DNA of 64,000 nucleotides from Streptomyces sp. MMG1121 (GTDB lineage Bacteria > Actinomycetota > Actinomycetes > Streptomycetales > Streptomycetaceae), in NCBI RefSeq assembly GCF_001280015.1, contig NZ_LGDV01000201.1:1-64000 (forward strand). Direction: 5' to 3'. Each line of letters starts with the position of its first letter. Within the stretch, counting starts at the first letter, position 1. This document shows positions 34,209-64,000 of the stretch, one piece after another. Made by a program: the position numbers and the translations under genes. Under the pieces are notes generated by a model. It searched no databases. It saw only the letters and a list, made by a program, of their open reading frames with translations, and was not told the origin of the DNA.

Positions 34209-34234
34209 CCGCCACCCCGGCCAAGGAGATCCAC

Positions 34235-38085: not shown

Positions 38086-38095
38086 GGAGCCCCCC

Positions 38096-38950: not shown

Positions 38951-39076
38951 CCCTGACGCATCACGAGGACGGCTTCGGGCGCAGCCCCCTGCGCCAAAAC
39001 CCGCTTCCAGGCCCGGATCGTGGCGGAGTCGGCATCGGCTTCGTACTGCGACAGCCGGTAGGTCTAAGCTCGGCGG

Positions 39077-39430
39077 ATGAGCTTGGAATGGGAACAGGTA
39101 ATTGTCCACTCGGTGGATCCGGCGGCCCTGGGTCAGTGGTGGGCCACGGCTCTCGGCTGGGTCGTGGTCTATTCCTCTGATGACGAGTTCGAGATCCGCC
39201 CGGAGCCGGATCGCATGCCGGGGTTGGACTTCGTCCGGATTGACGAGACCAAGAAGGCCAAGAGCCGACTGCATCTCGACTTCAGGCCGGATGACCAGGA
39301 CGCCGAGGTGGCCCGTCTGCTGGCCCATGGCGCACAGCGTGTCGATATCGGCCAGGGTGATCAGTCGTGGGTCGTACTGGCGGATCCCGAGGGCAACGAG
39401 TTCTGTGTCCTGGGCCCGCGGCGTCCTTGA
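39077..39430 (+). CDS. VOC-family (glyoxalase-like) protein
   Basis: A 117-residue vicinal-oxygen-chelate protein. The two beta-alpha-beta modules start at VIVHSVDPAALGQWWATALGW and LHLDFRPDDQDAEVARLL, and SWVVLADPEGNEFCVLGP is the usual ending. Metal ligands look incomplete, and many relatives are non-enzymatic binding proteins. No clear ribosome binding site. Function unknown. Confidence 0.85.
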   Translation: MSLEWEQVIVHSVDPAALGQWWATALGWVVVYSSDDEFEIRPEPDRMPGLDFVRIDETKKAKSRLHLDFRPDDQDAEVARLLAHGAQRVDIGQGDQSWVVLADPEGNEFCVLGPRRP

Positions 39431-39464
39431 GGGTCACGCCCGAGATTCCTGCGGACGGAGTTCC

Positions 39465-40385: not shown

Positions 40386-40507
40386 TCCTCACCGCGGGTG
40401 GGTGTGGCGGCGCCGGGCCCAGCGGTGGGCCGTGGGCCACGGGTCGCATGCCGAAGTCCGGTGACGTGCACACGAGTTGAGTCCGGCGAGGGTGGCGTGC
40501 GGGTCCC

Positions 40508-41764: not shown

Positions 41765-41795
41765 GCGCGGGTCCGGGCGGTGGGCCGGCGGGGCG

Positions 41796-48079: not shown

Positions 48080-49093
48080 ATGGGGATGCGGTGGACACCG
48101 GCGGTCCTGCACCGGGAGCGGCACGGGCGGATGCAGTGCGTGCTGTGTCCCTTCCGGTGTTCGCTGAAGGACGGCGAGACGGGTCTGTGCGGGGTGCGCC
48201 GGCGGTCCGGTGACCGGCTGGAGACGGCGACGTTCGCGTCGTCCGTACGGCACTGGGACACCGTCGAGCGCAAGCCGCTCTACCACTACCGGCCGGGCAC
48301 CCCCTGTCTCACCCTCGCCGCGCCCGGCTGCACCTTCGCCTGTGACTACTGCATCAACCACCGTATGTCCCAGTACGGCCGTGAGGACTCCGTCCGCTGG
48401 GACGCCGAGCCGGTGGACCCCGAGGACGTGACCGCCCAGGCCGCCGCGCGCGCGGGCTGTGTCGCGATCTCCTACACCGAGCCCTCGCTCGCCATCGAAC
48501 TCACCGCCGCCCTCGCCGAGTCGGGCCGCCCGCTCGGGGTGGACGTGGTCTGGAAGAGCAACGGCTTCCTCACCCCCGAGGCCGTCGACCTCGCGGCACG
48601 CCATGTCGCCGCGGTCAACATCGACGTGAAGACCCTCGACGAACGCGACCACCGCGAACTCACCGGGGCCCGGCCGGGTCCCGTGCTCGACACGCTGGCC
48701 GGGCTGCGCGAACGAGGGGTCTGGGTGGAGGTGTCGACCCCGCTGATCCCCGGACTCACCGCCGGGCCCGGCACCCTGCGGCCGATCGCCCGCGCGCTGG
48801 CCGCGCTGGACCCGGCGATCCCCTGGCACCTGGTCCGGGCCACCCCCGCCCACCGGCGCACCGGCCACGCGCCCACACCGGTGGCCGATCTCGCGGCCGG
48901 GGTGCGGATCGGGCACGAGGCGGGGCTGCGGCACGTGTATGTGGAACGGGCCCTGGGCGCGGACGGCCGGGCCACCCGGTGCTCGGGGTGCGGTACGACC
49001 GTGGTGGCCCGGGCGATCTGGGCGCTGGGCGGGAACGTTCTCGAGGGCGACAGGTGTCCGCGGTGCGGCACCGCGGTGGAGGGACGCTGGTGA
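48080..49093 (+). CDS. AmmeMemoRadiSam-type radical SAM protein
   Basis: A 337-residue radical SAM enzyme. The N-terminal CVLCPFRCSLKDGETGLCGV is a Cys-rich motif typical of this family. The 4Fe-4S site is CTFACDYC (CxxxCxxC). The C-terminus has two CxxC pairs (CSGC and CPRC), probably a zinc ribbon. Usual partners (AMMECR1 and Memo) are absent here; instead a 69-residue protein follows after 4 bases. ATG at 48080 follows GGGGGA. Confidence 0.88.
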   Translation: MGMRWTPAVLHRERHGRMQCVLCPFRCSLKDGETGLCGVRRRSGDRLETATFASSVRHWDTVERKPLYHYRPGTPCLTLAAPGCTFACDYCINHRMSQYGREDSVRWDAEPVDPEDVTAQAAARAGCVAISYTEPSLAIELTAALAESGRPLGVDVVWKSNGFLTPEAVDLAARHVAAVNIDVKTLDERDHRELTGARPGPVLDTLAGLRERGVWVEVSTPLIPGLTAGPGTLRPIARALAALDPAIPWHLVRATPAHRRTGHAPTPVADLAAGVRIGHEAGLRHVYVERALGADGRATRCSGCGTTVVARAIWALGGNVLEGDRCPRCGTAVEGRW

Positions 49094-49097
49094 CACG

Positions 49098-49307
49098 ATG
49101 ACCGAGTACCGGATGGTCGAGGACATCCCCGACCTGATCCAGCCCGAGGAGTACGAGGAGCATCCCGAAGGGCGGCTGGTGCGGATCAGCATCCGTGTCG
49201 ACGGCGGCGGGGTCCAGGTGCTCGGCGACGCCTTCCGGCCCGAGGTGCTGGAGCAGTTGCTGGAGACGCTGGGTCCCGACGCGATCGAGCAGATGCTCTG
49301 CGGCTGA
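49098..49307 (+). CDS. Small acidic protein coupled to the radical SAM gene
   Basis: A 69-residue acidic protein. The centre RLVRISIRVDGGGVQVLGD looks like a beta-hairpin; the C-terminal half is a helix that ends in IEQMLCG. It may be a regulator of, or substrate for, the preceding radical SAM enzyme. The Cys two residues from the end is notable. Function unknown. Confidence 0.65.
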   Translation: MTEYRMVEDIPDLIQPEEYEEHPEGRLVRISIRVDGGGVQVLGDAFRPEVLEQLLETLGPDAIEQMLCG

Positions 49308-49320
49308 CCGGCCCGCCGAC

Positions 49321-49369
49321 AGCCGTCAGCCATCAGACGTCAGTCGTCAGTCGTCAGCCGTCAGTCGTC
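49321..49369. repeat. Seven tandem copies of a 7-base unit AGYCGTC
   Basis: Units read AGCCGTC, AGCCATC, AGACGTC, AGTCGTC, AGTCGTC, AGCCGTC, AGTCGTC without gaps. The array fills the space between two convergent genes and covers the last codons of the WD40/vWA gene. Confidence 0.8.
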
Positions 49370-52300
49370 CGACAGCAGCGCCGTCAGCGCCGCCCGCAGT
49401 TCCTCCGGCGAGGGCTCCGGCGGCAGCACCTGGCGGTGCCGGGCGGGCTCGCGCCACGGGACGTGCGGGTAGTGCACGCGCAGTTCCCGCAGACCCGGCC
49501 GGGGCACGGGCCGCAGGTAGGGATGCGACAGCAGCACCATCCGGGGCGGCCCCGACAGGTCCGCGGTGAGCCGGGCGGCGACCACCTCGGCCTCCCGGAA
49601 CGCCGTCGGCACGTCGCCCTCCGCCAGCGGGCCCGCGGCCCACACGTGGACCAGGTCCTCCGGGCCCAGCAGGGTCCGCGACCGCCATGGCTCGCCGAGC
49701 GGCACCAGGGCGCACGGACGCCCCAGCCGGAGCACGGTGACGGCCATCAGATGGGCGGCCAGCCGCAGGACGGAGCCGACCTTGCCGTGGGTGGCGGGCG
49801 TGTCGTCCAGCACCAGCACCAGCCCGTGCGGATCGCGCGGCAGCCGGCCGCTGCTGGTGCGGTAGAGCAGCTCGTCCCGGGCGTGCCGAGCCCGCAACAG
49901 ATCGGTGGGCAGGGCGAGTTGGGTGGGCAGCAGCCGGTTGGCCGAGCCGTGCCGGGCGAGCCCCGAACGGCCGGTGCCGCCGGCCCCGCCCATGGCCAGC
50001 CCGGTGTCGCCGTCCAGCAGTCTGAGGCCCAGCAGGGCGCGCTGGGCGGGGCCGGGCGGGGTGAGGGAGAGCGGCAGCCGGCGCATCCGGGCCGGCAGGG
50101 TGGGATCGACGGCCACCGCCTCGGGGCCGAGGATGCGCAGGAGCGCCACCAGCCGGTCGTCCACCGTGCCCAGCGCGGCGGTCAGTTCGGTGAGGGCCGG
50201 CGCGGACCCGCGGGCGGGGATCGAGGAGCCGGCCAGCGCCCGGCCCAGGGCCTGGGCGAGGTCGGCGGGGGTGACCTCGGGCGGGGCGAGATAGGCCGGG
50301 GCGGCGGGCAGGTCGGCGACCAGCAACAGTGCCAGTCCCGCCAACGCGGGTCCCGGCCAGCCCAGTTCGCGCAGGGCGTGCAGACCCCGGTGGTCGGCCA
50401 GGGTGCGCAGCCGGGGCGGGGTGCTGCCGCGCAGCAGTGACAGTACGTCGCCGAGCTGGTCCAGCGGCACGCCGAAGCCGTGGGCGGCCGTGAGCACGCC
50501 GAGGCGGACCAGTTCCTCCTGGCCGCTCGGCGGGACCGGTGCCGCGGCGGTGCGGTGGCCGCCGGTGAACAGTTCCCACAGGACCGCGGCGCCCGAGTTG
50601 TAGGTGGCCGCGAGCTGGTCGCCGACCGGTGACCAGCGCAGGGTCCACAGATGTCCGCCGGCCCCGTCCGGCGGGACGAGCAGCCGGATGCGGCGGGGCT
50701 CGTCCGTGTCCCAGACCTCGGCCACGGAGTCCTGTCCGGCGGCGGGAAAGGCCAGCAGCCGGGAATCGGCGCACCAGGACAGCGCCGGTGCCCAGTCCCG
50801 GCCGCCGGCCTCGCCGAACGTCTTCCGGCGCTGCCAGCCGCCGGTGTCCCAGACCACGACCGGGCCGCCGGCGCTGCCCCCGGTCGCGGCGAGCCGGCTG
50901 CCGTCCGGGGACCAGGCCACCCGGCACACCATGGCCTGTGGATCGGGCCAGTCCAGTACCCGTACGCGTCGGCAGCGGCCGGTGGCGCCGGCGCTCCAGA
51001 CGATCACCCGGCCGCGGGTGCCGGCCGCGAGGAGACGGCCGTCCGGGGACCAGGCGGGCCGGCGCACCCCGTCCTCCACGGGCAGCCGCTGCGGCCCGCC
51101 GCTGTCCCGCGCGAGGTCGTGCACCAGCAGTTGGCGGGGGTCCGGGCCGGGCTCGGGCACCGCCCAGCGCAGGGGGCGCACCGGGTCGGCGGCGACCGCC
51201 TGGCCCGCCGTGCGCTCGGCGAGCACGGCACCGCCGTGCGGGTCCACCAGCCGGTTGACGCCCTGTTCGCAGTGGGCGGCCAGCACCAGCACCGGGCGGT
51301 CTCCGGCCAGACAGGCGGCGTCGTAGCAGCCGTGCGGGAAGCTCGGCACCGGGGTCTGGCCGAGCGGTTCGGTGGCGTCGGCGGCGTACTCCAGGAGGCG
51401 GCCGGGGCCGGACTCGCACCAGTGCCCCGCGCCGTCGGGCGACCAGACGAGGACGGGTGCGACACAGCCGAGCCCGGCCGCCGACAGCCGCAGTGCGCGC
51501 AGCACGCCCGGGGGCCGTTCGCCGGTGCGGGTGTGGACCTTGCCGACGGTGACGCCCATCGCGTTGGCCCAGCGGTGCAGTGCGGCCGGGTCCCGGCGCC
51601 GGTGTGCCCGTGGCACCGCGCCGGACGGCTCCCACACCGCCACGGTGTCCGCGTCGAGCCGGGCGGCGAACAGTCCGCTCGCCGACAGACTCAGCTCGCC
51701 GGGGCCGGTGACCCGGCCGGACAGCCGGCCCAGCAGGTCCAGGCGCGGGCCGAGGACCCGCAGTCCTTCCAGCGCGGAGCCGGCGATCAGCAGCGAGCCG
51801 TCGTGGCTGAACGTCAGCGCGTTCATGCGGTACGGCACGAACTCCCGCGCCAGTTCCCGGCCGGAGCCCGGATCCAGCAGCCGCAGTCCCGCGTAGTCCT
51901 CCACCGCGATCACCCGCCCCTCCGGGGAGCACGCCACCCGGCGCAGCCCCTCGAACAGCCCGCCGAGCGTGCCGGTCATGGTGGCGCCGTGCGGTTCCCA
52001 CAGCTGCGCGGAGGTCGCCGTGGCCACGCAGAGGGTGTCCTGCCGGCCCGGGATCCAGCTCACGTCGACCACCGGGTCCACCCCGCGCAGCCGGGTCACC
52101 GTGCCGTCGGCGCGATACAGCAGGAGGACGTCGCCCGAAGCGAGCCCGGCCGCGAGGTGCCGGGCGTCGGGCGAGAGGGCCAGGGCCGTGATGCCGGCCT
52201 CGGCGTCCAGGGCCGGGGGGAGTTCGACGGGCTCTCCGGTGTCGGCGTCGAGGAGGACCAGCCGGCCGGCGCCGAGCAGGAACAGCCGGTCGCCCTCGGG

Positions 52301-52528
52301 GCTCCACACCGCCGCGTCGGTGTCCGGGTGCCCCGCGGTGCCGGGCGTCGGGCCGGGCCAGGGCAGCCGCCACACGACGCGTCCCTCGTCGTCGTAGCGC
52401 ACGACGTCGTCGCCGTGCGGCACGACCAGTCCGGTGCCGTCGGGCGACAGGCACAGGCAGCGGGCGTCCGGCGCGGGCACGGTGAGGATCTGCTGGGCGC
52501 TCCAGGCGCCCGCGGCCGGTGTGCTCAC
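49361..52528 (-). CDS. WD40 beta-propeller / vWA-like fusion protein
   Basis: A 1055-residue protein that ends the conflict-type operon. Residues 1 to about 700 are WD40-like repeats (recurring SPDGRLLAAG, WSPDGSRLAA and VWD motifs). A helical part follows, and about residues 870-1030 look like a von Willebrand A domain: HGLVLVLDDTPATHGK at 901 takes the MIDAS position but departs from DxSxS. It matches the beta-propeller/vWA component that accompanies MoxR ATPases in predicted ternary conflict systems. GTG at 52528 overlaps the upstream stop as GTGA. Confidence 0.85.
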   Translation of the reverse strand: MSTPAAGAWSAQQILTVPAPDARCLCLSPDGTGLVVPHGDDVVRYDDEGRVVWRLPWPGPTPGTAGHPDTDAAVWSPEGDRLFLLGAGRLVLLDADTGEPVELPPALDAEAGITALALSPDARHLAAGLASGDVLLLYRADGTVTRLRGVDPVVDVSWIPGRQDTLCVATATSAQLWEPHGATMTGTLGGLFEGLRRVACSPEGRVIAVEDYAGLRLLDPGSGRELAREFVPYRMNALTFSHDGSLLIAGSALEGLRVLGPRLDLLGRLSGRVTGPGELSLSASGLFAARLDADTVAVWEPSGAVPRAHRRRDPAALHRWANAMGVTVGKVHTRTGERPPGVLRALRLSAAGLGCVAPVLVWSPDGAGHWCESGPGRLLEYAADATEPLGQTPVPSFPHGCYDAACLAGDRPVLVLAAHCEQGVNRLVDPHGGAVLAERTAGQAVAADPVRPLRWAVPEPGPDPRQLLVHDLARDSGGPQRLPVEDGVRRPAWSPDGRLLAAGTRGRVIVWSAGATGRCRRVRVLDWPDPQAMVCRVAWSPDGSRLAATGGSAGGPVVVWDTGGWQRRKTFGEAGGRDWAPALSWCADSRLLAFPAAGQDSVAEVWDTDEPRRIRLLVPPDGAGGHLWTLRWSPVGDQLAATYNSGAAVLWELFTGGHRTAAAPVPPSGQEELVRLGVLTAAHGFGVPLDQLGDVLSLLRGSTPPRLRTLADHRGLHALRELGWPGPALAGLALLLVADLPAAPAYLAPPEVTPADLAQALGRALAGSSIPARGSAPALTELTAALGTVDDRLVALLRILGPEAVAVDPTLPARMRRLPLSLTPPGPAQRALLGLRLLDGDTGLAMGGAGGTGRSGLARHGSANRLLPTQLALPTDLLRARHARDELLYRTSSGRLPRDPHGLVLVLDDTPATHGKVGSVLRLAAHLMAVTVLRLGRPCALVPLGEPWRSRTLLGPEDLVHVWAAGPLAEGDVPTAFREAEVVAARLTADLSGPPRMVLLSHPYLRPVPRPGLRELRVHYPHVPWREPARHRQVLPPEPSPEELRAALTALLSDD

Positions 52529-54189
52529 AGGTCCTCGCCCAGGTCGGCGGCGGCCCGCTCGTACATCTGGGCGGCGCGCTGGAAGTGGCCCGCCTGTTCC
52601 AGCAGTTCGGCGGCCTTGCGATACTCGCCGCGCAGGGAGTGCTCCATGGCGGCCTGGTTGAGCCGCCGCCGTTCGGCCTCGGGGGTGCGGGGCGCGGTGG
52701 GTGCGCTGGGCTCCGGTTCGGGTACGACGGCGGCGAGCCGCTCCAGCGCCTCCTGCGCGGGGTGGGACAGCCCGGTGGCGAAGACGGGCGGCTCGGGCAC
52801 CCACAGATGCCAGGCGGGCCGTACGTCCTCCAGGCGCAGCCGCCAGGCTCCGTCCCGGCACAGCACCGTGATCACGTCCGGGCCGAGGCCGAGCACCTCG
52901 TCGCGGGCGGTGTCCGGCAGCGGCGGGTTGAGGACGCAGCCGCTCTCCAGATAGAGGGCGCCGGGTCCGGCCTGGTGGACGGGTACGCCGAAGGGCAGGG
53001 CCTGGCACAGTCCGGGCGGCTCGGTCACCAGATGCCGGCCCGGTCCGAAGGCGACCACGGCGGTCTCGTGCAGCGGCCGGGAGCGCAGGAAGCGGCGCAG
53101 CAGGTCGAGTTCGCCGTCCGCGACCAGTACGGCGTCGACCCGGTGGGGCGCCCGCGCGCTGGTGACCAGGCGGACCGGCAGCGCGGGCCCGAGGGCGGGC
53201 ACGGGCACCGGGGTGCGCACGGGCACGGCGGGGCTCAACACCGGCCGTGCGTCGAGGAGTTCGCTCGCGGCCTGGTCGCCGAGCGGCCGCCACTCCCAGG
53301 GCGGACCGGACACGGCGCGCTCCACGACGAGGTGCCGGCCGGGGGGGATGTCCTCCAGAAGCACCGCGTCGTCCAGGGGCAACCGCAGCCGCAGGTCGAT
53401 GAGGAGCCGGCCGTCCGGGTCCGCTGCCCGGCAGGCCACCGTCCCCGGGAGCCGGCCGCACGCCTCGACCAGTCCGGCGGGTACGGCGCCGGACGCGGCG
53501 TCCAGCCGGAGCAGCAGCCAGCCCCGGTCGGCGCGGCCGTCCGCGTCGAGGCGTTCGACGGGCTGGAAGGTGGTCGCCACCCCGGTGGCCAGGCAGCGGC
53601 GCAGCAGCCAGCGGGCGAGGGCGCCCGGCGCGAGGACGGCGATCTCCTTCAGGCCCGGGGGCGGGGTGTCCTCGGGGCTGTACGCGGTGAGTTCGGCGAG
53701 GGACACCGGGTCCCATCGGGCCAGGGCGGAGAGGGTTCCGAAGGCCTGCGGGACCTGCCCGCGGGGCGGGTCGGGCCACAACAGGCCGTCGGTGTCCGCG
53801 TGGAAGACGAGACCGCCGTATGCGGGAACGAGCGGCAGGCCCGGCTGGTGTTCGGGGCTGAGCAGGGTCCACAGGGACTGGTCGTGGGGCGATCTGCGCA
53901 GGGCGCGCGGACCCAGTTCCACCGTCGCCGCGACATGCCCGAGGGCGGCCCGGACGGAGGGGAAGCGGACCGCGGCCGACCAGCCGGGCGGCCCGCCCAC
54001 CTCTCCGGGATCGGGGGCCGGTGGTTCGTCGGGCGGCCCGGGCGGCGTGCCGTGGCCGGGCGGGGGCAGCTTGACCGCGGTGAAGCGGGGCAGCGGCTCG
54101 GCGGGCGGGGGCGGAACGGGCGGAGCGGGTGGCTGGGCGGGAAACACGAACGGGAACGGCCGCTTCTTGCGCCGCCAAGGAGTGGTCAT
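52525..54189 (-). CDS. Pro-rich protein of unknown function, conflict operon
   Basis: 554 residues. Residues 1-75 are Pro-rich and probably disordered (FVFPAQPPAPPVPPPPAEP). The core (80-470) shows no known family; several segments end in VLLEDIPPGRHLVVER-like strands. The C-terminus (490-554) is a coiled/TPR-like helical hairpin, RRRLNQAAMEHSLRGEYRKA. Tight coupling to the WD40/vWA gene suggests it belongs to the accessory components of MoxR/vWA systems. ATG at 54189 has GGGGG 3 bases upstream. Confidence 0.75.
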   Translation of the reverse strand: MTTPWRRKKRPFPFVFPAQPPAPPVPPPPAEPLPRFTAVKLPPPGHGTPPGPPDEPPAPDPGEVGGPPGWSAAVRFPSVRAALGHVAATVELGPRALRRSPHDQSLWTLLSPEHQPGLPLVPAYGGLVFHADTDGLLWPDPPRGQVPQAFGTLSALARWDPVSLAELTAYSPEDTPPPGLKEIAVLAPGALARWLLRRCLATGVATTFQPVERLDADGRADRGWLLLRLDAASGAVPAGLVEACGRLPGTVACRAADPDGRLLIDLRLRLPLDDAVLLEDIPPGRHLVVERAVSGPPWEWRPLGDQAASELLDARPVLSPAVPVRTPVPVPALGPALPVRLVTSARAPHRVDAVLVADGELDLLRRFLRSRPLHETAVVAFGPGRHLVTEPPGLCQALPFGVPVHQAGPGALYLESGCVLNPPLPDTARDEVLGLGPDVITVLCRDGAWRLRLEDVRPAWHLWVPEPPVFATGLSHPAQEALERLAAVVPEPEPSAPTAPRTPEAERRRLNQAAMEHSLRGEYRKAAELLEQAGHFQRAAQMYERAAADLGEDL

Positions 54190-54226
54190 GGGTCCCCCGA
54201 TGGACGGATCTGGTGGTACCGCTCGC

Positions 54227-54901
54227 CTAGGCCGGGGCCGCACCTGGCGGGGCGGGCCCGGCGGGCACGCCGGTGGTGTCGCCCAGGTTCCGGGCGGCCC
54301 AGTGCTGCCAGCGGTCGGCACAGCCGCCGACGCCGGCCCGGTAGGAGGCGGCGAAGACGAGGGCGCCGAGGTCCGGGCGGTGCATGTGGTCGGCCGCGGT
54401 GACCGCCCACAGCTCGACCTCGGCCCGCTCCCGGGCCGGGGCGAGCGAGCCGATACGGTCCGGTACGCCCGTGATGGTGCGCAGCAGCGGGGCGCTCTCG
54501 CCGTAGGCCCGGGCGGTGGCCAGTTGCCGGCCGATCCGGCGTCGCAGCCCTTCACCCGGTGTCTGCGCCCGTGCGGCCGCGAACAGTTGCTCGGCGGTGG
54601 CGAAGGACCGGGTGCGGGTGACCAGGGTCCAGCCGGCGCGCAGCAGATCGCCGCCCTCCTCGAAGCACACGGCGGCCGCCTCGAACCGGCGCGCGGACAA
54701 CAGGCATTCGCCGGCCCGGCTCGGCCGGCGGGCGCGCGTCCAGCAGTCGGCGGCGCGCGCCGGGTCGCCCGCCTGCTCCCACAGTTCGGCCGCCTTCAGC
54801 GGGTGGCCGGCCTCGTCGTGGCAGCGGGCGGCCTGGGCGTAGTCGCCGGTCTGCTCGTAGCAGTGGGCGGCGCGCACCAGGAGGTCGGGCGGCCGCGTCA
54901 T
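54227..54901 (-). CDS. Helical-repeat (TPR-like) protein
   Basis: 224 residues. The first 130 consist of short repeats, each with an AA-C-x-E-x-AG-like core (RAAHCYEQTGDYAQAARCHD; KAAELWEQAGDPARAADCW; AAVCFEEGGDLLRAG), forming a TPR-like superhelix for protein binding. The rest is helical with no family. ATG overlaps the stop of the DUF2997-like gene (ATGA). Confidence 0.8.
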   Translation of the reverse strand: MTRPPDLLVRAAHCYEQTGDYAQAARCHDEAGHPLKAAELWEQAGDPARAADCWTRARRPSRAGECLLSARRFEAAAVCFEEGGDLLRAGWTLVTRTRSFATAEQLFAAARAQTPGEGLRRRIGRQLATARAYGESAPLLRTITGVPDRIGSLAPARERAEVELWAVTAADHMHRPDLGALVFAASYRAGVGGCADRWQHWAARNLGDTTGVPAGPAPPGAAPA

Positions 54902-55164
54902 TCGTGGGCGCGTTCCCGCTCGGGGCGCTCGCTCGCCGGCTGTTCGGACTGCGCGTGCAGCCCCGGGGCCGGCTCCCGCTCGCGGTCCGGGACGGCCTCG
55001 TCCACCCCCGGCCGGCGGTCCAGCACCCGGCCGATGCCGTAGGCGATCTCGTCGTGGGTGGCGTCGTGGTCGCCGATCCGGGTGGTGCGGCCGATGTCGT
55101 CCACCCGGAACAGCTCGACCTCGCCGGTCTCGGCGTTGTACCGGAACTCGACCCTGACCCGCAT
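54898..55164 (-). CDS. DUF2997-like small protein
   Basis: 88 residues. Residues 1-55 resemble DUF2997: VRVEFRYNAETGEVELFR gives a beta-hairpin, followed by a helix (IAYGIGRVLD). The remaining 30 residues are charged and disordered. DUF2997 proteins accompany AAA-linked systems of unknown function. The start is 3 bases beyond the stop of the upstream gene. Assignment is tentative. Confidence 0.65.
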   Translation of the reverse strand: MRVRVEFRYNAETGEVELFRVDDIGRTTRIGDHDATHDEIAYGIGRVLDRRPGVDEAVPDREREPAPGLHAQSEQPASERPERERAHE

Positions 55165-55167
55165 CGC

Positions 55168-55962
55168 TCAGGCCTCCATCTCGAACTGGATGTTGAGCAT
55201 CCCGTCCGTCTCGTCGACGCGCAGGTCCTGTACGCCGTGCTCGCGGGCGTACGCCACGATGGCGTCGCGGTAGGCCACGGCCAGGATCTCGTGGACCGGG
55301 CGCAGGAAGGCGGTCCGGGCGTCCCGCAGCCGGGCCTCGGCGTCGCGTTCGAGTTCTTCGCGGCGCCGGCCCGCGTCCGCGACGGCCCGGCGTTCGGCCT
55401 CCGCGTGGGCCTCGGCGTCGATCTCGTCACGCTGGTCCGCCAGCCGGCGCTGTCCGGCCAGCCGCTCCCGTTCCTCCTCGCGGGCGATCTGCTCCGCCGC
55501 CTCGCGCTCCGCGCGCTCCTTGGCCCCGGCGTGAGCGGTGCGTTCGGCCACCGACCTGCTCAGGCCGGCCCAGTTGTCGTCGAAGTACTTCGCGGTCTCC
55601 TCGGCGGTGGCGTTCACCTCCACCGTGCCGTGCAGGGTGCGGGTGACCTCGGCCTCGGCGGTGACGACGTCGGTGAGCCGGGCGGTCATCTCGATCTCAC
55701 CGCTGTCGAGGTGGTAGACGATCGCGCCGCCGTCCATCTCGAGCCGGTAGCCGCCGTCCTGCCAGGCCCACCGGGTGTCGGTGCCGAGTGCGGACTCGAA
55801 GGCCCGGCGGGCCGGGGCGCCGAGCAGGGACCCGAACTCCTGGCGCAGGGTGGCCTCCGCGGCCACCTCGGTGCTGGCCTGGGCCGTGCGGCTGAGCTCT
55901 TCCTGCCACATGCGGGTGAGCCGGCTGGAGGCCCGGACGCGGACGCGTCGGGGATTGCACAT
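55168..55962 (-). CDS. Coiled-coil protein with MCNPRRV start
   Basis: 264 residues. The N-terminal segment MCNPRRVRVRASSRLTRMWQ is followed by a mixed alpha/beta part (to about 125), a long charged coiled coil (about 130-225; runs of Glu, Arg and Ala) and a C-terminal alpha/beta cap that ends LNIQFEMEA. The terminal parts may pack together around the coil. No known enzyme motif. It lies between the MoxR gene and the DUF2997-like gene and is probably a structural component. Confidence 0.75.
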   Translation of the reverse strand: MCNPRRVRVRASSRLTRMWQEELSRTAQASTEVAAEATLRQEFGSLLGAPARRAFESALGTDTRWAWQDGGYRLEMDGGAIVYHLDSGEIEMTARLTDVVTAEAEVTRTLHGTVEVNATAEETAKYFDDNWAGLSRSVAERTAHAGAKERAEREAAEQIAREEERERLAGQRRLADQRDEIDAEAHAEAERRAVADAGRRREELERDAEARLRDARTAFLRPVHEILAVAYRDAIVAYAREHGVQDLRVDETDGMLNIQFEMEA

Positions 55963-55992
55963 GGTGGGATACCCCCTCGTATGTTCCCGCCC

Positions 55993-57198
55993 TCACTCGA
56001 ACTGGTCGAGCAGTGCGTTCACTTCGGCAATGATACGAGACAGCTCTGCCTCGGTCCCGGTGTTCACCGGTGGATGTTCCCTCAACTCCCGTGACAGGTC
56101 GGCGAGTTTGTGCAGACCTTCGACGACGCTCCATTCGCTGGGCTGCCGTTCGGGCCGCAGTGGCGCGCCGATCTCCCGGGCGTCGAGCAGGATCTCGTGG
56201 TCGGAGCGGCGTCGCCGGGCCGGTTCGCCTCCGTGTTTCTCCACGACGGCCTGTACGGCCTCCTCGACCGTGGTGCGGTCGGCCGGGTCGGTCCAGATGT
56301 GGGCCAGCGGCCACAGGTCGACCGGCTCGGCGGTACGGGACTCGCGCAGCAGCGCGGCCGCGGCGACCAGTTTCAGGCTGCGCACCAGCCGGCGGTCCGA
56401 GAGCCGTACGCCTTGGATCAGCAACTGCCGTACCAGTTCCCGGTGTTCGCCGAGCACGGGGTCCAGGCCGACGTCCTTCAGCAGCAGGGTGAGCCGGCCC
56501 AGCCGCTCGACGGTCACCGTGCCCGTGGTGCGGTCCGCGGCGGCCGGAGCGGGGGCGCCCGTGCCCCGCGCCTGCTCGGCCGCGTGCACGGCCTCGGTGA
56601 ACCGGCGGGTCTCGTGGCCCCAGCCGACCTGGAGCAGCCGCTCCAGGTCGGTGCCGCCCACCGGTTCCACCTGGAGGCGGAGCAGGAAGCGGTCGGAGAA
56701 GGCGGTCAGGCCCGGGTCGTCGGGTATCTCGTTGGTGGCGCCCAGCAGACTGATCAGCGGGGCGTTCTCGGCGGCTGCGCCGTTGTGGTAGCGGCGTTCG
56801 TTGAGCAGGGTCAGCAGGGTGTTGAGGATGGCACTGCTGCCCTGGAACACCTCGTCCAGGAAGACGAGTTCGGCCGTCGGCAGCATGCCCTCGGTGCGCA
56901 CCTGGTAGGTGCCCTGCCTGAACCGCTCGAAGTCGAGCGCGCCGAAGATCTCCGACGGCTCGGTGAACCTGGTGAGCAGATAGCTGAACCGGCGTGCCTC
57001 GATGTACCGGGCGAGGGCGGAGATCAGCTCGCTCTTGGCGGTGCCGGTCGGGCCGAGCAGCAGCGCGTGTTCCCGGCAGACCACGGCGAGTTGCAGCAGC
57101 CGTACGGCGCGTTCGCGGCCGACGAACTCGTCGCCGAGCCGTCGTCGTACGTACTCCAGGTCCCTGATGGTGTCGACGGTGTCCTGGCCCCAGCTCAC
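55993..57198 (-). CDS. MoxR-family AAA+ ATPase
   Basis: 401 residues. Walker A GPTGTAKS at 49-56 and Walker B ELVFLDEVFQG at about 110-120, followed by the MoxR/RavA-type SSAILNTLLTLLNER and the sensor GATNEIP. MoxR ATPases remodel or load partner proteins, often with vWA proteins; a WD40/vWA protein is encoded downstream. GGAGG lies 4 bases before the GTG at 57198. Confidence 0.95.
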   Translation of the reverse strand: MSWGQDTVDTIRDLEYVRRRLGDEFVGRERAVRLLQLAVVCREHALLLGPTGTAKSELISALARYIEARRFSYLLTRFTEPSEIFGALDFERFRQGTYQVRTEGMLPTAELVFLDEVFQGSSAILNTLLTLLNERRYHNGAAAENAPLISLLGATNEIPDDPGLTAFSDRFLLRLQVEPVGGTDLERLLQVGWGHETRRFTEAVHAAEQARGTGAPAPAAADRTTGTVTVERLGRLTLLLKDVGLDPVLGEHRELVRQLLIQGVRLSDRRLVRSLKLVAAAALLRESRTAEPVDLWPLAHIWTDPADRTTVEEAVQAVVEKHGGEPARRRRSDHEILLDAREIGAPLRPERQPSEWSVVEGLHKLADLSRELREHPPVNTGTEAELSRIIAEVNALLDQFE

Positions 57199-57237
57199 CG
57201 CGCCTCCTGCCTCGTGTCCCTCGTGTCCGCCACGGTG

Positions 57238-59153
<1,916 letters not shown>

Positions 59154-59157
<4 letters not shown>

Positions 59158-60023
59158 GCGGGACTTCCCCCTCTGGCTTCGAGCCGTTCGACCTGCCGGT
59201 ACAGGCGCACGCCCGCCAGATACTCCTTGCCGATGCCGGAGCGGGCGCGCAGCAGCGGCCGGTGCGAGCGCTCCAGCCGGGCGAGCGCGGCCCACCAGGA
59301 GGCGACCGGGCGGGCCGCGGCCAGGTCGGGCGGCGCGGTCAGGCCGACGCGGGCCCGGCGGATCAGCGCCAGGTGCGCCGCGGTATGGCGCAGCAGCGCC
59401 GCCTCGTACACGTCGATCACCAGCTCCCGTTCACTCATCCGGAGCTGGTCGAGCAGCCGGCCGCGCCACAGGGCCTGGGCCGGGGAGGCGGGGGCCTCGC
59501 AGTAGACCGTGGTGATCAGCCGACGTCCCTGATGATGTGTCAGCAGTACGTCCTCCAGGAGGAGTTCGGCGTCGCTCTCGCCGACCGGGTCGGGCCGGTC
59601 GAGGAGCGCGGTGAGCGGTGAGGCGGCGCGCAGCCGGCCGGCCAGTGTCCGGTCGCCGATGTGCGCCAGCGCGGGCGCGACCACCGCGTGGTGGGCGAGC
59701 ACGTCCCACAGCGAGCGGGCGGGCGGCACCGCACGGACCGTCTCGGCCGCGAGCAGGGCCTGGGCGCGGCCGCCGACGGCGGCGGCGAGCAGGAGCGCGC
59801 CGGCGCCGACCGGCCGCCGCTCGCCGGACGCCAGCGCGTCGAGCCGCAGCCGGGCGGCGGACTGTGCCGCCAGCCGGACGACGGCCGCGCTGACGTCGGC
59901 CGGCGGCACGGCCAGTTGCTGCGGGTCCGTCAGTTCGCCCTCGGGCGGGGGCGGGCCCGCCCCCGCGCCGCCGTCAGTCGTCGACCACAGCAGCACGCGT
60001 AAGGCGGTATCGACCGCGGTCAT
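59154..60023 (-). CDS. Helical protein of unknown function, conjugation operon
   Basis: 289 residues, almost entirely helical, rich in Ala and Leu. No signal, membrane segment or known motif. It starts 50 bases inside the 3' end of the JAB gene and has a weak ribosome binding site, so its translation probably depends on the JAB gene. It could be an adaptor between the JAB protein and the AAA ATPase. Confidence 0.75.
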
Positions 60024-61080
60024 CTTTCACCCACTGTTCGCATTCGCGTACGGAGTCGCCGGAACGGGCGTAGAAGCGCAGGAGCCGCTCGTCGCCGGTG
60101 AGATTGATCAGTCCGGCCACCTGCCAGGGCTGCCGGAAGGTGCCGAGGTGCAGATCGACGTCGATGCTGGACAGGCCCGAGTCGTTCCCCGAGAACAGAT
60201 GGGTGTGGTACCAGCCCATCAGCTGCCGGTCCTGTCCGGAGGCGGTGATGCGCTGGTTCACCTCGCGGAAGGAGTCTCCGGTGAAGGTGAAGTGCAGGGC
60301 TCCGGCTCCCGAGTGCTCGGCGGGCGTGACCTCGTTGATCTCCACCAGGTAGCGCTCGGCCGGCGCGTCGCTGTCGCCGTTCTCCCCGTCCGGGCGCTCC
60401 GAGCGGCCGGGTCGGTCGGGGCCGAGGACCCTGAGGACCCGGCCGAGCAGGAAGCCGCCCTCCTCCAGCCGGCGGGAGAGCTTCATCTCGTGCAGATGGC
60501 CGTGGATGTCGCCGGAGAGCAGGACCGTCACGGGGCCGAGCCCGGCCGCGTCGATGCCCAGCTCCCCCGGGTCCACCCCGGGCACGGGGGGCTCGGCCAC
60601 CTTGCGTACGGTGAAACTTCGCCTGCTCTCGCGGAGGTTGAGGTCCATGGCGCCCTCGACCTCGGGGGTGGAGCGCCCGAGGGCCAGACCGCTGAGCGAG
60701 GGATGGTCGAGGCAGAAGCCCCACACCTCCTCGTCGGCATCGATCTGCTGGACCACGTGCTGCAGGACCGGTCCGAGCAGTTCCCGTACCGGGAACTCGC
60801 CGTCGACCACCTTCTCCGAGCCGCGCGAGACGGTGACCCCCAGTCGGCCGATCTGGCTGCGCAGGTTGTGGAGGGTGCGCGGGCCGTCCGCCAGCCGTGG
60901 GTCCGGCCGGCGCACATAGCGCATCTCCAGGATCAGTTGCTCGTCCGGGTCGCCGCCGGCCAGTTCCCGGCGCACCGCCTCGATGATCAGCGAGGAGAGG
61001 GAGATCTTGCCGACCAGCTCGAAGCTCGTGCCCTTGTAGAGCAGCACCATGGCGCCGCCGGCGCGGCTTTCGTCACTCAT
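59974..61080 (-). CDS. JAB/JAMM-domain isopeptidase
   Basis: 368 residues. The C-terminal JAB fold (about 195-350) carries the catalytic Glu in EEGGFLLGR (Glu206) and the zinc site HTH-x9-SxxD (His292, His294, Asp307), two residues longer than the common HxH-x7-SxxD. Residues 1-190 are an extra domain of no known family. JAMM enzymes remove ubiquitin-like modifiers. Adjacent E1-like and E2-like genes support that role. The ATG overlaps the E2 stop by 8 bases. Confidence 0.9.
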   Translation of the reverse strand: MSDESRAGGAMVLLYKGTSFELVGKISLSSLIIEAVRRELAGGDPDEQLILEMRYVRRPDPRLADGPRTLHNLRSQIGRLGVTVSRGSEKVVDGEFPVRELLGPVLQHVVQQIDADEEVWGFCLDHPSLSGLALGRSTPEVEGAMDLNLRESRRSFTVRKVAEPPVPGVDPGELGIDAAGLGPVTVLLSGDIHGHLHEMKLSRRLEEGGFLLGRVLRVLGPDRPGRSERPDGENGDSDAPAERYLVEINEVTPAEHSGAGALHFTFTGDSFREVNQRITASGQDRQLMGWYHTHLFSGNDSGLSSIDVDLHLGTFRQPWQVAGLINLTGDERLLRFYARSGDSVRECEQWVKDDRGRYRLTRAAVVDD

Positions 61081-62572
61081 CCGGGCTCGCTTCCACGCGC
61101 TCGACCGTCAGGAATCGGGAGCGGTCGGCCCGCTCGGTCAGACCGGCCCGGGTCAGCCAGGGGGTGCCGCCGATCTCCTTGATGCGTTCCTGGCCCTCCC
61201 AGGAGAACGCCCAGGCGGCGGCGTCCCCGTCGAGGTACTCGCCGCGCTGGATGATGTCCTGCACCAGGCTTTCGTAGTCCATGGCCATCCGGTAGTCGTG
61301 CGGCAGGATCTCGTAGTTTCGGTAGCGGACCATGTCGATGAGCATCTGGCACAGGGACTCCATGCTCAGGTCGGGTGTGTAGTCGGTCATCAGCGGGCCG
61401 AGACACACCGCGCCCTTGTTGTCCTGGCCGCGGGCGATGTTCGGGTGGAACACGTCCGAGCGCCAGCGCACGCGCGGCGCCTGGATGGGGAACTCGGCCG
61501 GCATCCAGATCACCAGCTCGTGCCGGTCGATGCGCCGCGGGTCCGGCGGCCAGGCCTCCAGGTCCTGCGGCGGGGCGAAGCCGGGCACGTGCAGCTCCAC
61601 CGTGTACTCCAGCGGCAGCCGGTCGTCGTCCATCTCGACCAGGGTGAACTCGGGGTGCTCCGCGGCGAAGTCCACGAGGTCGTCGCGGGCCCGGGCGAGT
61701 GCCTCCAGGCGCAGCCAGCTGTCGACGCCGGCGGTGGACTCGGCGGACATCTGCAACTGACCGCCGTCCCGGACTCCTTGGTTGTGCAGTGGTTCCTCGG
61801 GATCGAGCCGGTGGGCCTCGCCGTTCTCGTCACGGTAGTCGACCACGGCCCGCAGCAAATGCCCGTTGGCGTCCTGGGCCACCTCGGGCCGGTACTGCGC
61901 CCAGACGGCCGGGACGAGTTCGCTCGGCAGGGTCGTGTTGGGTACGTAGGGGATCTCGAACTGCTGGCCGTCGGGGCCCATGACCTCCAGGCGTGTGTAC
62001 AGGGTGGGCCGGAACTCGTACTCGCCGTAGAGCACTTCAACTCCGGGGGCGATGCGCGCGGCCCGCTCCCGCAGTTCCTCCACCCGGTCCGGGGGCAGCC
62101 CGGTGACCCGGAAGGCGGCCTGCCGGTGGCCGGCGTAGAGCTGGACGGCGTCCGCGTCGACCAGTTCGCGCACCAGTCTCAGCAGCTCGGGGTAGGCCTC
62201 GCTGCCCACGAACTCCACGGTGCGGTAGAGGGTTTCGGCGTTGTCGGCGGACTGTGCGCGTTCCTGCTCCTCCTCGCTGAGGAAGCGCAGGATCTTCTTC
62301 AGGACCTCGTTGCCCGGCCAGCGCCGCAGTACGGTGTCCAGCAGCTGCCGCACGCCGTCGCGCTGGACGGCGCCCAGTTCCAGGGCGCGCACCACCTGCC
62401 GCCAGTACGCGGTGACTTCCTGGCTCCCGTCCCAGCGGGGCCGGGCCTGCGGCGGGAAGTCCATGTCCTCCAGGAGTTCCTCGGCCTGGATCTGGGTGCG
62501 GTAGATGTCGGCCAGCGTGTCGATCAGCTCGCGTTTGATCTCGGTGGGCAGCTTGCCCGCTTCATAGCTCAT
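61073..62572 (-). CDS. E2-like conjugating protein with EAD-like and ubiquitin-like domains
   Basis: 499 residues in three parts. Residues 5-95 resemble an effector-associated (EAD) death-like helical domain (YWRQVVRALELG, LLDTVLRRWPGNEVL). Residues 193-278 look like a beta-grasp ubiquitin-like domain (LEVMGPDGQQFEIPYV, LDPEEPLHNQGVRDGGQLQ). Residues 285-465 are a UBC fold: the HPN motif at 376-378 in FHPNIARG and the catalytic Cys390 in GAVCLGP, spaced as in eukaryotic E2 enzymes. It would take a modifier from the E1-like protein next door. The ubiquitin-like part has no C-terminal GG and may not be conjugated. Confidence 0.93.
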   Translation of the reverse strand: MSYEAGKLPTEIKRELIDTLADIYRTQIQAEELLEDMDFPPQARPRWDGSQEVTAYWRQVVRALELGAVQRDGVRQLLDTVLRRWPGNEVLKKILRFLSEEEQERAQSADNAETLYRTVEFVGSEAYPELLRLVRELVDADAVQLYAGHRQAAFRVTGLPPDRVEELRERAARIAPGVEVLYGEYEFRPTLYTRLEVMGPDGQQFEIPYVPNTTLPSELVPAVWAQYRPEVAQDANGHLLRAVVDYRDENGEAHRLDPEEPLHNQGVRDGGQLQMSAESTAGVDSWLRLEALARARDDLVDFAAEHPEFTLVEMDDDRLPLEYTVELHVPGFAPPQDLEAWPPDPRRIDRHELVIWMPAEFPIQAPRVRWRSDVFHPNIARGQDNKGAVCLGPLMTDYTPDLSMESLCQMLIDMVRYRNYEILPHDYRMAMDYESLVQDIIQRGEYLDGDAAAWAFSWEGQERIKEIGGTPWLTRAGLTERADRSRFLTVERVEASPDE

Positions 62573-63582
62573 CGGGGCGTTCCTTTCCCGCCGGCCTCGG
62601 AGAGTTCCAGGTAGCGGATTCCGCGGGTGCGGCCGGTCGTGAGGACCGGCAGGATCTCGCGCGGTGCCACGCCGAGATCGGCGAGCCGGGCGCCCGGCGG
62701 CGCGTCCGCGAGCCGGGTGGATGCGCGCGTGGGCGCTGATCCGGGCAACGGCGCCCAGGTCATCACGGTCTCCTCGGGGGCGAGATGGTCGGTCAGATCG
62801 GCCGGGGTGGACAGCACCGTGTGCGGGACGGGGGCCACCAGGCCGGCGGGGATGGGGGTGTGCAGCGGGCAGTCGGGGTCGCGGCGCGGGGTGACCGGGG
62901 CCGCCGTACCGCCGGCGGCGTCCACCCGGACCACGCCGGGGCCGCTGCCCGCTCCGCACAGCAGCCGTACCGCGGTGACCGCCAGCCAGGAGCCGACCAG
63001 CGCGGAGACGGGCGCCGAGGCGCCGGCCTCGGGTACGACGGCGTCCGCGCAGGCCCACGGGTCGTCCTGGGCGGCGCGGTCGCGGGCGGTCAGGCCGCAG
63101 CCGAAGCAGGGGCCGGACGGCTCGTACAGCCGTATCTCGCCGCCCCAGGCGCTGGTGCCGCCGTCCAGCAGCGGTGCGCCGGTCTGCAGGCAGCGGCCGG
63201 CGAGCTGGAGCCGGGCGGCCAGGCTGTCCAGACAGCTGACGACGAGGGAGGCGTCCCGCAGTTCCGCGAGGCCCACCCCGCTGACCAGGGGCGCGGTGCG
63301 GGCGTCGACGCGGGTCACCGGGGACAGCTTGGTGAGCCGGCGGGCCGCGACGGTCGCCTTGGGCCGGCCGATGTCGGCGGCGCGGAACAGCGGGGCGCGG
63401 CTGAGGTTCGACTCCGAGACCTCGTCGGGGTCGCACAGCACCAGCCGGCCGACGCCGGCCAGGGCGAGCGCCTGGGCGCACTGGTTGCCCAGGGCGCCCA
63501 CCCCGCACAGCACGACGGTGGACTCGGCGAGCCGCCGCTGGTCCCAGCCGGCGATCAGGGCGTGCCGGTCGAAGCGGCCCAT
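62569..63582 (-). CDS. ThiF/E1-like adenylyltransferase
   Basis: 337 residues. The ATP site is VVLCGVGALGNQ (27-32), with D51 and N59 in DPDEVSESNLSR, and the Asp that contacts the adenylate in VSCLDS (119). Two Cys at 159/162 (CFGC) with Cys238 (DPDCPLH) and another may bind zinc. Cys178 (DDPWACADAVVP) lies in the loop that often holds the thioester Cys of E1 enzymes. A 90-residue C-terminal domain may position the E2. ATGA coupling to the E2 gene. Confidence 0.93.
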   Translation of the reverse strand: MGRFDRHALIAGWDQRRLAESTVVLCGVGALGNQCAQALALAGVGRLVLCDPDEVSESNLSRAPLFRAADIGRPKATVAARRLTKLSPVTRVDARTAPLVSGVGLAELRDASLVVSCLDSLAARLQLAGRCLQTGAPLLDGGTSAWGGEIRLYEPSGPCFGCGLTARDRAAQDDPWACADAVVPEAGASAPVSALVGSWLAVTAVRLLCGAGSGPGVVRVDAAGGTAAPVTPRRDPDCPLHTPIPAGLVAPVPHTVLSTPADLTDHLAPEETVMTWAPLPGSAPTRASTRLADAPPGARLADLGVAPREILPVLTTGRTRGIRYLELSEAGGKGTPR

Positions 63583-63583
63583 G

Positions 63584-64000
63584 TCAGTCCCGCCTCAGCG
63601 TGCGGAAGTTCATGGGGCACTGTTTGACGGTCAGTTCGCTGCGCCACTGCTCGAAGCAGCCGAGGCCGCGCGCCGGGTCCTGGTGGACGGCCTTGCGGCA
63701 GCCGGGTGCCTCGGGCGAGCAGGGGCAGACGACGACCGTCTCGAACAGCCGGAAGGTGTGGGTGCACACGAAACAGGCGTTGCGCCGCTGGGGTTGTCCG
63801 AGCACCGGGTCGCCGGGCATCAGCCGTGCGGTGTGCAGCGTGTCCGGCGGGGGGTCGGTGAGGTCGACGCCACGGAAGAAGGCGGCCTGCGCGGTCGGGT
63901 CGGGCGGCCCGGCGGCGGGCGGTGCCTCGCCGCTGCACGGCAGGTTGCGCAGATGGTGGGTGACGTCGGCCAGCTTGCCGTCCTCCGCGTGGCGCAGATA
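63584..64000 (-). CDS. Cys-rich zinc-binding protein (N-terminus off window)
   Basis: The frame is open to the right edge, so only the last 138 residues are visible. Near the C-terminus are at least seven Cys: CFVC, CPCS, PGCRKA, LGCFEQ and KQCPM, with several His, enough for one or two zinc sites of treble-clef or RING-like type. It ends 1 base before the E1-like gene. It may be an E3-like or adaptor protein, but the pattern does not match a canonical RING and no function can be claimed. Confidence 0.75.
   Translation of the reverse strand, partial: YLRHAEDGKLADVTHHLRNLPCSGEAPPAAGPPDPTAQAAFFRGVDLTDPPPDTLHTARLMPGDPVLGQPQRRNACFVCTHTFRLFETVVVCPCSPEAPGCRKAVHQDPARGLGCFEQWRSELTVKQCPMNFRTLRRD

What the first reader, a model, noticed from the sequence alone, without database searches (positions are those of the whole stretch)
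49361..64000. Ubiquitin-like conjugation module embedded in a MoxR/vWA/beta-propeller operon
Twelve minus-strand genes, most overlapping or a few bases apart, encode a Cys-rich protein, an E1-like enzyme, an E2 with Ubl and EAD-like domains, a JAB isopeptidase, a Cdc48-like AAA protein, a MoxR ATPase, scaffold-like proteins and a WD40/vWA fusion. Each of the two halves resembles a class predicted by comparative genomics (bacterial E1-E2-JAB systems; MoxR-vWA-propeller ternary conflict systems). Their union in one operon would give tagging, untagging, unfolding and sensing in one machine. I know of no experimental description of this combination.
Basis: partly seen in the sequence, partly recalled or inferred. 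Interest (0 to 1): 0.92.

Follow-up and report, generated by a model that had tools for sequence, protein, structure and literature searches.

The report
Ubiquitin-like conflict operon in Streptomyces
This Streptomyces operon looks like a bacterial immune machine that tags proteins with a ubiquitin-like label carrying a docking domain for a protease; the gene set was predicted by computer in 2020, and here its label is found to end in a conserved, ubiquitin-style glycine tail that makes the idea directly testable.

Summary
Twelve close-packed minus-strand genes run from 64000 to 49361: RING-like, E1, EAD1-Ubl-E2, JAB, fvmX1, an AAA protein, bpMoxR, fvmX2, fvmX3, a TPR protein, fvmX7-TPR and WD40-(vWA-like). 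The novelty claim is not correct. This union is the 'complex' FtsH-ternary system that Kaur et al. 2020 (eLife, PMC7159879) predicted by comparative genomics. I found no experiment on it in the papers searched.

An EAD1-CHAT/caspase-like effector lies just past the window edge (64222-65076). A radical-SAM gene and a 69-aa peptide ending in ...QMLCG lie at 48080-49307, converging on the operon. E1, E2, JAB, the AAA protein and MoxR occur together in 36 of 43 loci. Markers of the two halves occur in the same 5 of 392 genomes of the genus.

New here is mechanistic evidence. The Ubl ends in Ala-Gly at the ubiquitin Gly76 position, in a predicted flexible linker (60 of 65 distinct Ubl-E2 sequences). 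The motif persists when other domains replace E2, and is lost in Ubl copies that look permanently fused.

Best model: JAB cuts after Gly282, and E1, E2 and RING attach EAD1-Ubl to targets. EAD1 then recruits the EAD1-protease. New member of a known kind.

The parts
63584..64000 (-). RING-like E3 candidate, 213 aa; the gene continues past the window to 64225. N-terminal Zn knuckle (C56, C59, H84, C91, in the numbering) and C-terminal RING-like module
   Evidence: eight ligands C145 C148 C161 C163 C170 H175 C184 C197 in 39 of 39 loci with a hit; model pLDDT 82; the top 17 PDB hits are all RING domains, individually weak
62569..63582 (-). E1-like ThiF/MoeB enzyme, 337 aa
   Evidence: ThiF 5e-45; C178, C159, C162, C238, H241 in 40 of 40 loci with a hit
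61073..62572 (-). EAD1 - YukD-like N domain - Ubl - E2 fusion, 499 aa; Ubl tail S-T-A281-G282, E2 catalytic C390 with HPN 376-378
59974..61080 (-). fvmJAB_N + JAB/JAMM metallopeptidase, 368 aa
   Evidence: E206, H292, H294, S304, D307 in 34 of 34 aligned homologues
59154..60023 (-). fvmX1, system-specific protein, 289 aa
   Evidence: PF19998 5e-80
57238..59157 (-). AAA ATPase (FtsH/Cdc48-like), degenerate first AAA and intact second AAA, no peptidase domain seen
   Evidence: AAA 1e-39; CDC48 186 bits, FtsH 164 bits, both below cut-off; Walker A K428 in 41 of 41 loci with a hit
55993..57198 (-). bpMoxR ATPase with GPTGTAKS P-loop
   Evidence: PF20030 8e-74; K55 in 37 of 37 loci with a hit
55168..55962 (-). 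fvmX2, 264 aa
   Evidence: PF20000 3e-67
54898..55164 (-). fvmX3, 88 aa
   Evidence: PF19999 1e-28
54227..54901 (-). TPR-like scaffold, 224 aa
   Evidence: TPR_2 2e-5, below cut-off; TPR-profile hit in 37 of 43 loci, some of which may be generic TPRs
52525..54189 (-). fvmX7 + TPR
   Evidence: PF20005 2e-86
49361..52528 (-). WD40 beta-propeller with divergent vWA-like C-terminal region
   Evidence: WD40 2e-13; vWA not confirmed by profile; D-x-[ST]-P type motif
48080..49093 (+). Radical-SAM enzyme of the AmmeMemo type, converging on the operon; not in the finding
   Evidence: PF04055 4e-16; TIGR04337 213.7 bits, cut-off 220; homologues in 11 other loci
49098..49307 (+). 69-aa peptide ending EQMLCG; not in the finding
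   Evidence: homologues in 13 other loci and in 25 of 32 distinct genomes, this one included; 24 of 24 ORFs found by the pattern end LCG-stop

Best explanation
It is a complex-type FtsH-ternary conflict system. Inferred action: JAB cuts the EAD1-Ubl-E2 precursor after Ala281-Gly282, freeing EAD1-Ubl with a C-terminal glycine and a separate E2. E1 (C178) activates that glycine and passes it to E2 (C390), and the RING protein directs its attachment to a target, probably a product of infection. The attached EAD1 recruits the CHAT/caspase-like protease through its own EAD1, and JAB can reverse the tag. The AAA and MoxR chaperones with the propeller, X and TPR proteins set the threshold or remodel the complex. 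Shown here by computation: the domains, the catalytic residues, the co-inheritance and the conserved tail. Not shown: cleavage, conjugation, EAD1-EAD1 binding, any antiviral effect, and the roles of the radical-SAM gene, the peptide and the X proteins.
For: Identity: six fvm families plus bpMoxR and EAD1 match above their cut-offs, and the literature description matches part by part except for the unconfirmed vWA. Conservation: 36 of 43 loci (42 fetched plus the window) have E1, E2, JAB, AAA and MoxR, and 30 of 43 have the uninterrupted order RING-E1-EAD1-Ubl-E2-JAB-X1-AAA-MoxR-X2-X3. X2 and JAB_N occur in the same 5 of 392 genomes of the genus, 5.1-5.6 kb apart.
Catalysis: key residues kept.
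Processing: A281 in 44 of 44 and G282 in 39 of 44 aligned proteins. Residues 279-283 have pLDDT below 50 between the last Ubl strand (272-277) and the first E2 helix (285), and matched E2 folds start at model residue 282-289. A weak profile match to an archaeal-type ubiquitin-like protein (2mqj, sequence E 0.017, aligned stretch E 0.71) puts A281-G282 without gaps on its Gly-Gly. Tails after removal of identical segments, many still from close relatives: AG in 60 of 65 before E2; AG also before EAD1 (P0143), a Roc-COR protein (L047), a Hint-like region (P0152) and a short tail (L019); AG absent in an EAD1-Ubl-TIR protein (P0149), a Ubl-TIR protein (L024) and the first of two adjacent Ubls (P0145).
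EAD pairing: only two EAD1 matches in this genome, both here; EAD1 followed by the caspase domain in 30 of 43 loci. In L047 the effector carries EAD11, and the Ubl-Roc-COR protein has a weak, sub-threshold EAD11 match (E 0.007).
Against: Five of 44 aligned Ubls lack the glycine: Ala-Ala in L032, L034, L041 and L044; Val-Ala or Ala-Ser, depending on the alignment, in L046. Yet their JAB motif is kept and E1 C178 and E2 Cys are kept in all loci with a hit, so either another residue can be used or conjugation is not universal. L019 keeps JAB and a Ubl tail without E1, E2 or RING nearby; L033 has the operon from Ubl-E2 onward but no E1 or RING in the 4.6 kb upstream on its contig. No promoter, expression or biochemical data. 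The vWA and the RING are supported only weakly by profile methods. In L047 a cut after the Ubl would separate the Ubl from its EAD11 instead of leaving them together. Target and trigger are unknown.
Confidence: 0.65

Rival explanations
1. The tag marks targets for unfolding and destruction: EAD1-Ubl conjugates are pulled by the Cdc48/FtsH-like AAA, possibly with the host proteasome, and the EAD1-protease is an accessory.
For: The second AAA is intact and closest to CDC48 and proteasome-activating families (186 and 181 bits, below cut-offs); Kaur et al. also allow routing to proteasomal degradation. Bacteroidota loci L044, L046 and L047 keep the Ubl genes plus the AAA gene but no MoxR was found.
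Against: The conserved EAD on the Ubl and on the effector (30 of 43 loci EAD1-caspase; EAD1-TIR in L044 and L046) would be unexplained; no peptidase domain seen on the AAA protein.
Confidence: 0.2
2. The Ubl-E2 fusion works uncut and without covalent transfer, as a scaffold; the Ala-Gly is a structural linker.
For: Ubl and E2 lie in one ORF in each of the 41 loci with an E2 hit; five of 44 lack Gly; YukD-type Ubls need not be conjugated (recalled).
Against: E1, E2 and JAB catalytic residues are conserved; the AG motif also occurs before EAD1, Roc-COR and Hint-like regions and is lost in internal Ubls.
Confidence: 0.12
3. It is a house-keeping complex-assembly or stress machine, not an immune system.
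For: MoxR/RavA relatives assemble complexes (recalled); of eight proteins scanned against the defence library PADLOC only the E1, AAA and caspase-like proteins match anything.
Against: Sporadic presence (5 of 392 genomes of the genus; 1 of 396 of the phylum above the X2 cut-off), swapped effectors (CHAT, TIR, Roc-COR, phosphoesterase) and EAD adaptors are marks of conflict systems.
Confidence: 0.15

Closest known systems
Complex-type FtsH-ternary system (Kaur, Burroughs, Iyer, Aravind 2020, PMC7159879; sections 21, 22, 24 and part 1 of 36 read, other passages by term search)
   Same: Propeller-vWA, MoxR with GxxxTAKS, two-AAA protein, JAB, E1, RING, EAD1-Ubl-E2, EAD1-caspase, private helical proteins, radical-SAM with peptide
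   Different: Nothing essential seen in gene content. No zincin metallopeptidase was recognised next to the peptide here, though none was searched for by profile. The main text does not discuss the Ubl glycine (the word 'glycine' occurs once, for another protein); supplementary data were not seen
BilABCD (seen only as passages of a review, PMC11354881)
   Same: Four-part Ubl, E1, E2, JAB chemistry; JAB first exposes the Ubl glycine
   Different: Four-gene operon with a separate two-Ubl protein and an E2 with a CEHH motif; here a fused EAD1-Ubl-E2 with HPN...C, plus RING, EAD, AAA, MoxR and effector genes
CBASS Cap2/Cap3 (Jenson et al. 2023, PMC10097602; outline and abstract seen)
   Same: E1/E2/deconjugase chemistry used in phage defence; the C-terminal glycine of a defence protein is attached to targets
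   Different: There the nucleotide-making enzyme itself is attached; here a Ubl carrying an adaptor
Ubiquitin-like protein 2mqj (archaeal origin and JAMM processing recalled)
   Same: Ubl tail Gly-Gly followed by an extension; aligns without gaps on A281-G282
   Different: No fused EAD1 or E2; weak profile match, E 0.017
TERNS3 systems (PMC8195603, passages)
   Same: Ubl and E2 components fused to EAD1, with an E1
   Different: No FtsH, JAB or RING mentioned in the passage seen

Membership tests
Complex FtsH-ternary system | AAA protein with inactive first and active second AAA domain | tested here: met
   second AAA GPPGTGKT, K428 in 41 of 41 loci with a hit; the window protein has AEKPVVP where the first P-loop would be (by eye, not counted across loci)
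Complex FtsH-ternary system | MoxR with GxxxTAKS P-loop | tested here: met
   GPTGTAKS, PF20030 8e-74
Complex FtsH-ternary system | beta-propeller N-terminal to a vWA domain | tested here: inconclusive
   propeller clear; vWA not detected by profiles, only a D-x-[ST]-P type motif; Kaur et al. call this vWA highly divergent
Complex FtsH-ternary system | E1, JAB and EAD1-Ubl-E2 genes | tested here: met
Complex FtsH-ternary system | RING-type E3 | tested here: met
Complex FtsH-ternary system | EAD1-fused caspase-like effector | tested here: met
   64222-65076, EAD1 9e-9 and CHAT 7e-13; catalytic H 31 of 32, C 32 of 32 loci with a hit
Complex FtsH-ternary system | private helical proteins | tested here: met
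   fvmX1, X2, X3, X7 families match; their folds were not predicted
Complex FtsH-ternary system | radical-SAM peptide module (associated with most such systems) | tested here: met
   no zincin peptidase recognised, not searched by profile
MoxR-vWA-propeller ternary (subsystem 4) | no FtsH component; propeller C-terminal to vWA | tested here: not met
   AAA/FtsH-like gene present and propeller at the N-terminus; definition
BilABCD | E2 with CEHH motif and separate double Ubl | tested here: not met
   HPN-C E2 in 41 of 41 loci with a hit, Ubl fused to E2; definition from review passages
Antiviral defence system | protects against phage | not testable with these tools
   needs an infection experiment

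The most novel reading that the evidence does not exclude
The operon is a two-tag machine. Besides EAD1-Ubl, the 69-aa peptide, matured by the radical-SAM enzyme, is a second modifier: its strictly conserved C-terminal Leu-Cys-Gly is handed through the same E1-E2-RING chain, so that radical-modified peptides and effector-recruiting adaptors are both attached to infection targets.
Probability: 0.1. Interest if true: 0.88.

Novelty: new member of a known kind. Interest (0 to 1): 0.52.

Why it matters
If the model holds, some multicellular bacteria use ubiquitin-style chemistry to attach an immune adaptor to a target and so bring a caspase-like protease to it, a bacterial parallel of ubiquitin- and death-domain signalling in animal immunity. 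The conserved Ala-Gly tail, the tandem precursor P0143 and the contrasting cases that lose it turn a genomic prediction of 2020 into a one-residue test.

Tried and rejected
Rejected: the union as a new combination. Rejected: subsystem 4 membership. Rejected: the peptide as a relative of fvmX3 or of the Ubl by profile comparison (probabilities 4.7 and 0.4); no convincing relative among solved structures (best E 0.23). Plasmid searches: the tandem protein gave none; P0152 gave 9 records, matching only over its TIR region. Search with the Hint-like region in the ORFs of the 43 loci: none. vWA profile search: one hit, not a vWA. RING profile search in PDB: best E 0.47, not a RING; a RING chain appears fifth at E 3.1. 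The resemblance of X2 and X3 to DUF1257/DUF2997 that came to mind was not pursued. The Hint-like reading of P0152 is sub-threshold (Pfam Hint 3e-4, 20.9 bits against 29.7; intein 0.055 and bacterial intein-like domain 0.96), and its expected His of the T-x-x-H motif (motif recalled) is Gln, so self-cleavage is uncertain.

Limits: the 42 loci were anchored on JAB, so they cannot count clusters without JAB; the genus survey with X2 is the check that does not depend on JAB, but only 5 genomes are positive, and one sub-threshold X2 match elsewhere in the phylum was not examined. Seven of 43 loci lack the full joint set: two are cut by contig ends (L037, L042), three are Bacteroidota without MoxR (L044, L046, L047), one is reduced (L019), and one (L033) has no E1 or RING in the 4.6 kb present upstream. 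Loci reach at most 10 kb beyond JAB, so vWA, radical-SAM and peptide counts from loci alone are lower bounds. One search was given 29 of the 42 loci plus five genome handles; two pairs were the same genome. The tail count removes only identical segments.


Full report
1. The observation. The minus strand from 64000 to 49361 carries twelve genes in one direction, with junctions that overlap or are at most 39 bp apart. The window is bases 1-64000 of a 385,349-base contig. The genus is Streptomyces by inference: a genome listed as same genus (G687) gives the same places as the S. monashensis record behind L010. Pfam names almost every gene: ThiF; EAD1, fvmYukDl_N and UQ_con in one protein; fvmJAB_N; fvmX1; AAA; bpMoxR; fvmX2; fvmX3; TPR (below cut-off); fvmX7; WD40. 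The fvmX families are described in Pfam as FtsH ternary system domains.

2. Upstream of the window edge lies 64222-65076 (minus), an EAD1-CHAT/caspase-like protein (EAD1 9e-9, CHAT 7e-13) whose stop overlaps the start of the RING gene. It and the Ubl-E2 protein hold the only two EAD1 matches of the genome. Downstream, on the plus strand and converging on the operon, lie a radical-SAM gene (48080-49093; PF04055 4e-16; AmmeMemoRadiSam 213.7 bits against a cut-off of 220) and a 69-aa peptide (49098-49307) ending EQMLCG. Kaur et al. report a peptide module with that kind of radical-SAM enzyme beside most FtsH-ternary systems that carry the Ubl ligases.

3. It is a known kind. Section 21 of Kaur et al. 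2020 describes the same union. So the combination is not new, but it is a prediction. Searches for an experiment showed none among the papers listed (one search returned nothing at all). Papers were seen as listings, plus passages of PMC8195603 and PMC11354881, the outline and abstract of PMC10097602, and named sections and passages of PMC7159879.

4. Conservation. A JAB alignment (A1) pulled 42 loci from actinobacteria, acidobacteria, gammaproteobacteria, Bacteroidota and a Nostoc (some phyla assigned from the organism name). Iterated profile searches with the window included (43 loci) give hits to E1 in 40, RING in 39, Ubl in 42, E2 in 41, AAA in 41, X1 in 39, MoxR in 37, X2 in 36 and X3 in 35. 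E1, E2, JAB, AAA and MoxR occur together in 36 of 43, and the exact order RING-E1-EAD1-Ubl-E2-JAB-X1-AAA-MoxR-X2-X3 in 30 of 43. Since these loci were chosen by JAB, I also asked the reverse question: fvmX2, a marker of the MoxR half, and fvmJAB_N occur in exactly the same 5 of 392 genomes of the genus, own genome included, 5.1-5.6 kb apart. In 396 genomes of the phylum only the own genome passes the X2 cut-off. The system is rare but was always seen as a unit in that genus sample. Three Bacteroidota loci (L044, L046, L047) have the Ubl genes and the AAA gene but no MoxR, X2, X3 or X7 hit, and no LCG peptide in their genomes. The Ubl half can therefore exist without the MoxR half; the MoxR half without JAB was not seen in the genus sample. 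L033 has the operon from Ubl-E2 onward but no E1 or RING in the 4.6 kb upstream on its contig.

7. Contrasts among Ubl copies. After removal of identical segments the tail before E2 is AG in 60, AA in 4 and VA in 1; many of these come from related Streptomyces. AG also stands before a second EAD1 in a tandem precursor, EAD1-Ubl-AG-EAD1-Ubl-AG-E2 (P0143, essentially the L024 protein); before a Roc-COR GTPase (L047); before a short tail (L019); and directly before a cysteine that begins a Hint/intein-like region in a TIR-Ubl protein (P0152). It is missing where the Ubl looks permanently fused: EAD1-Ubl-TIR (P0149, essentially L024 5114-7717), Ubl-TIR (L024 3234-4316, its TIR match just below cut-off) and the first of two adjacent Ubls (P0145). 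P0018 and P0020 end before the tail. So the motif is not a property of the E2 junction. Against the model: five of 44 lack the glycine, each contrasting context rests on one protein, and P0152 has Gln where the Hint T-x-x-H His (recalled) is expected.

8. How it probably works. JAB releases EAD1-Ubl; E1, E2 and RING attach it; EAD1 draws the EAD1-protease; AAA and MoxR with the propeller gate or remodel the complex; JAB resets. Effectors are swapped while the adaptor logic stays: EAD1-TIR in L044 and L046, EAD11-CHAT in L047 beside a Ubl-Roc-COR protein with a sub-threshold EAD11 match at E 0.007, a phosphoesterase fused to EAD1-Ubl-E2 in P0150. The steps after domain identification are inference, and the recruitment and release steps are those proposed by Kaur et al..

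9. The LCG peptide. It is found in 25 of 32 distinct genomes searched (all chosen for having JAB), in 23 of these on the JAB contig within 20 kb, and 24 of 24 peptide ORFs found by pattern in the loci end in Leu-Cys-Gly-stop (one pair is the same genome). In L032, L034, L041 and L043 it is encoded on the operon strand between the propeller-vWA gene and the RING gene. A free C-terminal glycine beside an E1 invites the two-tag reading in the section on the most novel reading, for which there is no direct evidence.

10. Verdict. Observation confirmed; union already predicted; new member of a known kind, with fresh mechanistic support and a one-residue test.

Noticed in passing
L003:4986-11296 (contig 64986-71296), plus strand, divergent from the effector gene: Protein kinase (Pkinase 3e-11) and a double-GTPase 2 like protein (PF19993 3e-6, 27.3 bits at a cut-off of 27), followed further on by two genes without Pfam match: perhaps a neighbouring GTPase-centred conflict system.
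   Followed up: partly
L019:7635-11074: Streptosporangium locus with EAD1-caspase, EAD1-Ubl ending VTAG plus a short tail, and JAB (start/stop overlap kept); no E1, E2 or RING found nearby. Reduced system or decay.
   Followed up: partly
L024:3234-9969: Acidobacterial locus with EAD1-TIR, EAD1-Ubl-TIR and Ubl-TIR proteins next to a tandem EAD1-Ubl-EAD1-Ubl-E2 precursor, recalling polyubiquitin.
   Followed up: partly
L047:2553-13361: Flavitalea variant with EAD11 in place of EAD1: EAD11-CHAT, Ubl(AIAG)-Roc-COR with a weak EAD11 match, Ubl(AVAG)-E2.
   Followed up: partly
L020:5913-9990: Dactylosporangium aurantiacum locus with two E1 and two EAD1-Ubl-E2 genes in tandem.
   Followed up: no
L033:1-4700: Frankia locus with the operon from Ubl-E2 onward but no E1 or RING match in the 4.6 kb upstream: loss, relocation or assembly join not distinguished.
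   Followed up: partly
window 31627-43553: SHMT, sarcosine-oxidase alpha-like protein, ornithine cyclodeaminase-like protein, histidine kinase and sodium:solute symporter: ordinary catabolic neighbours.
   Followed up: no
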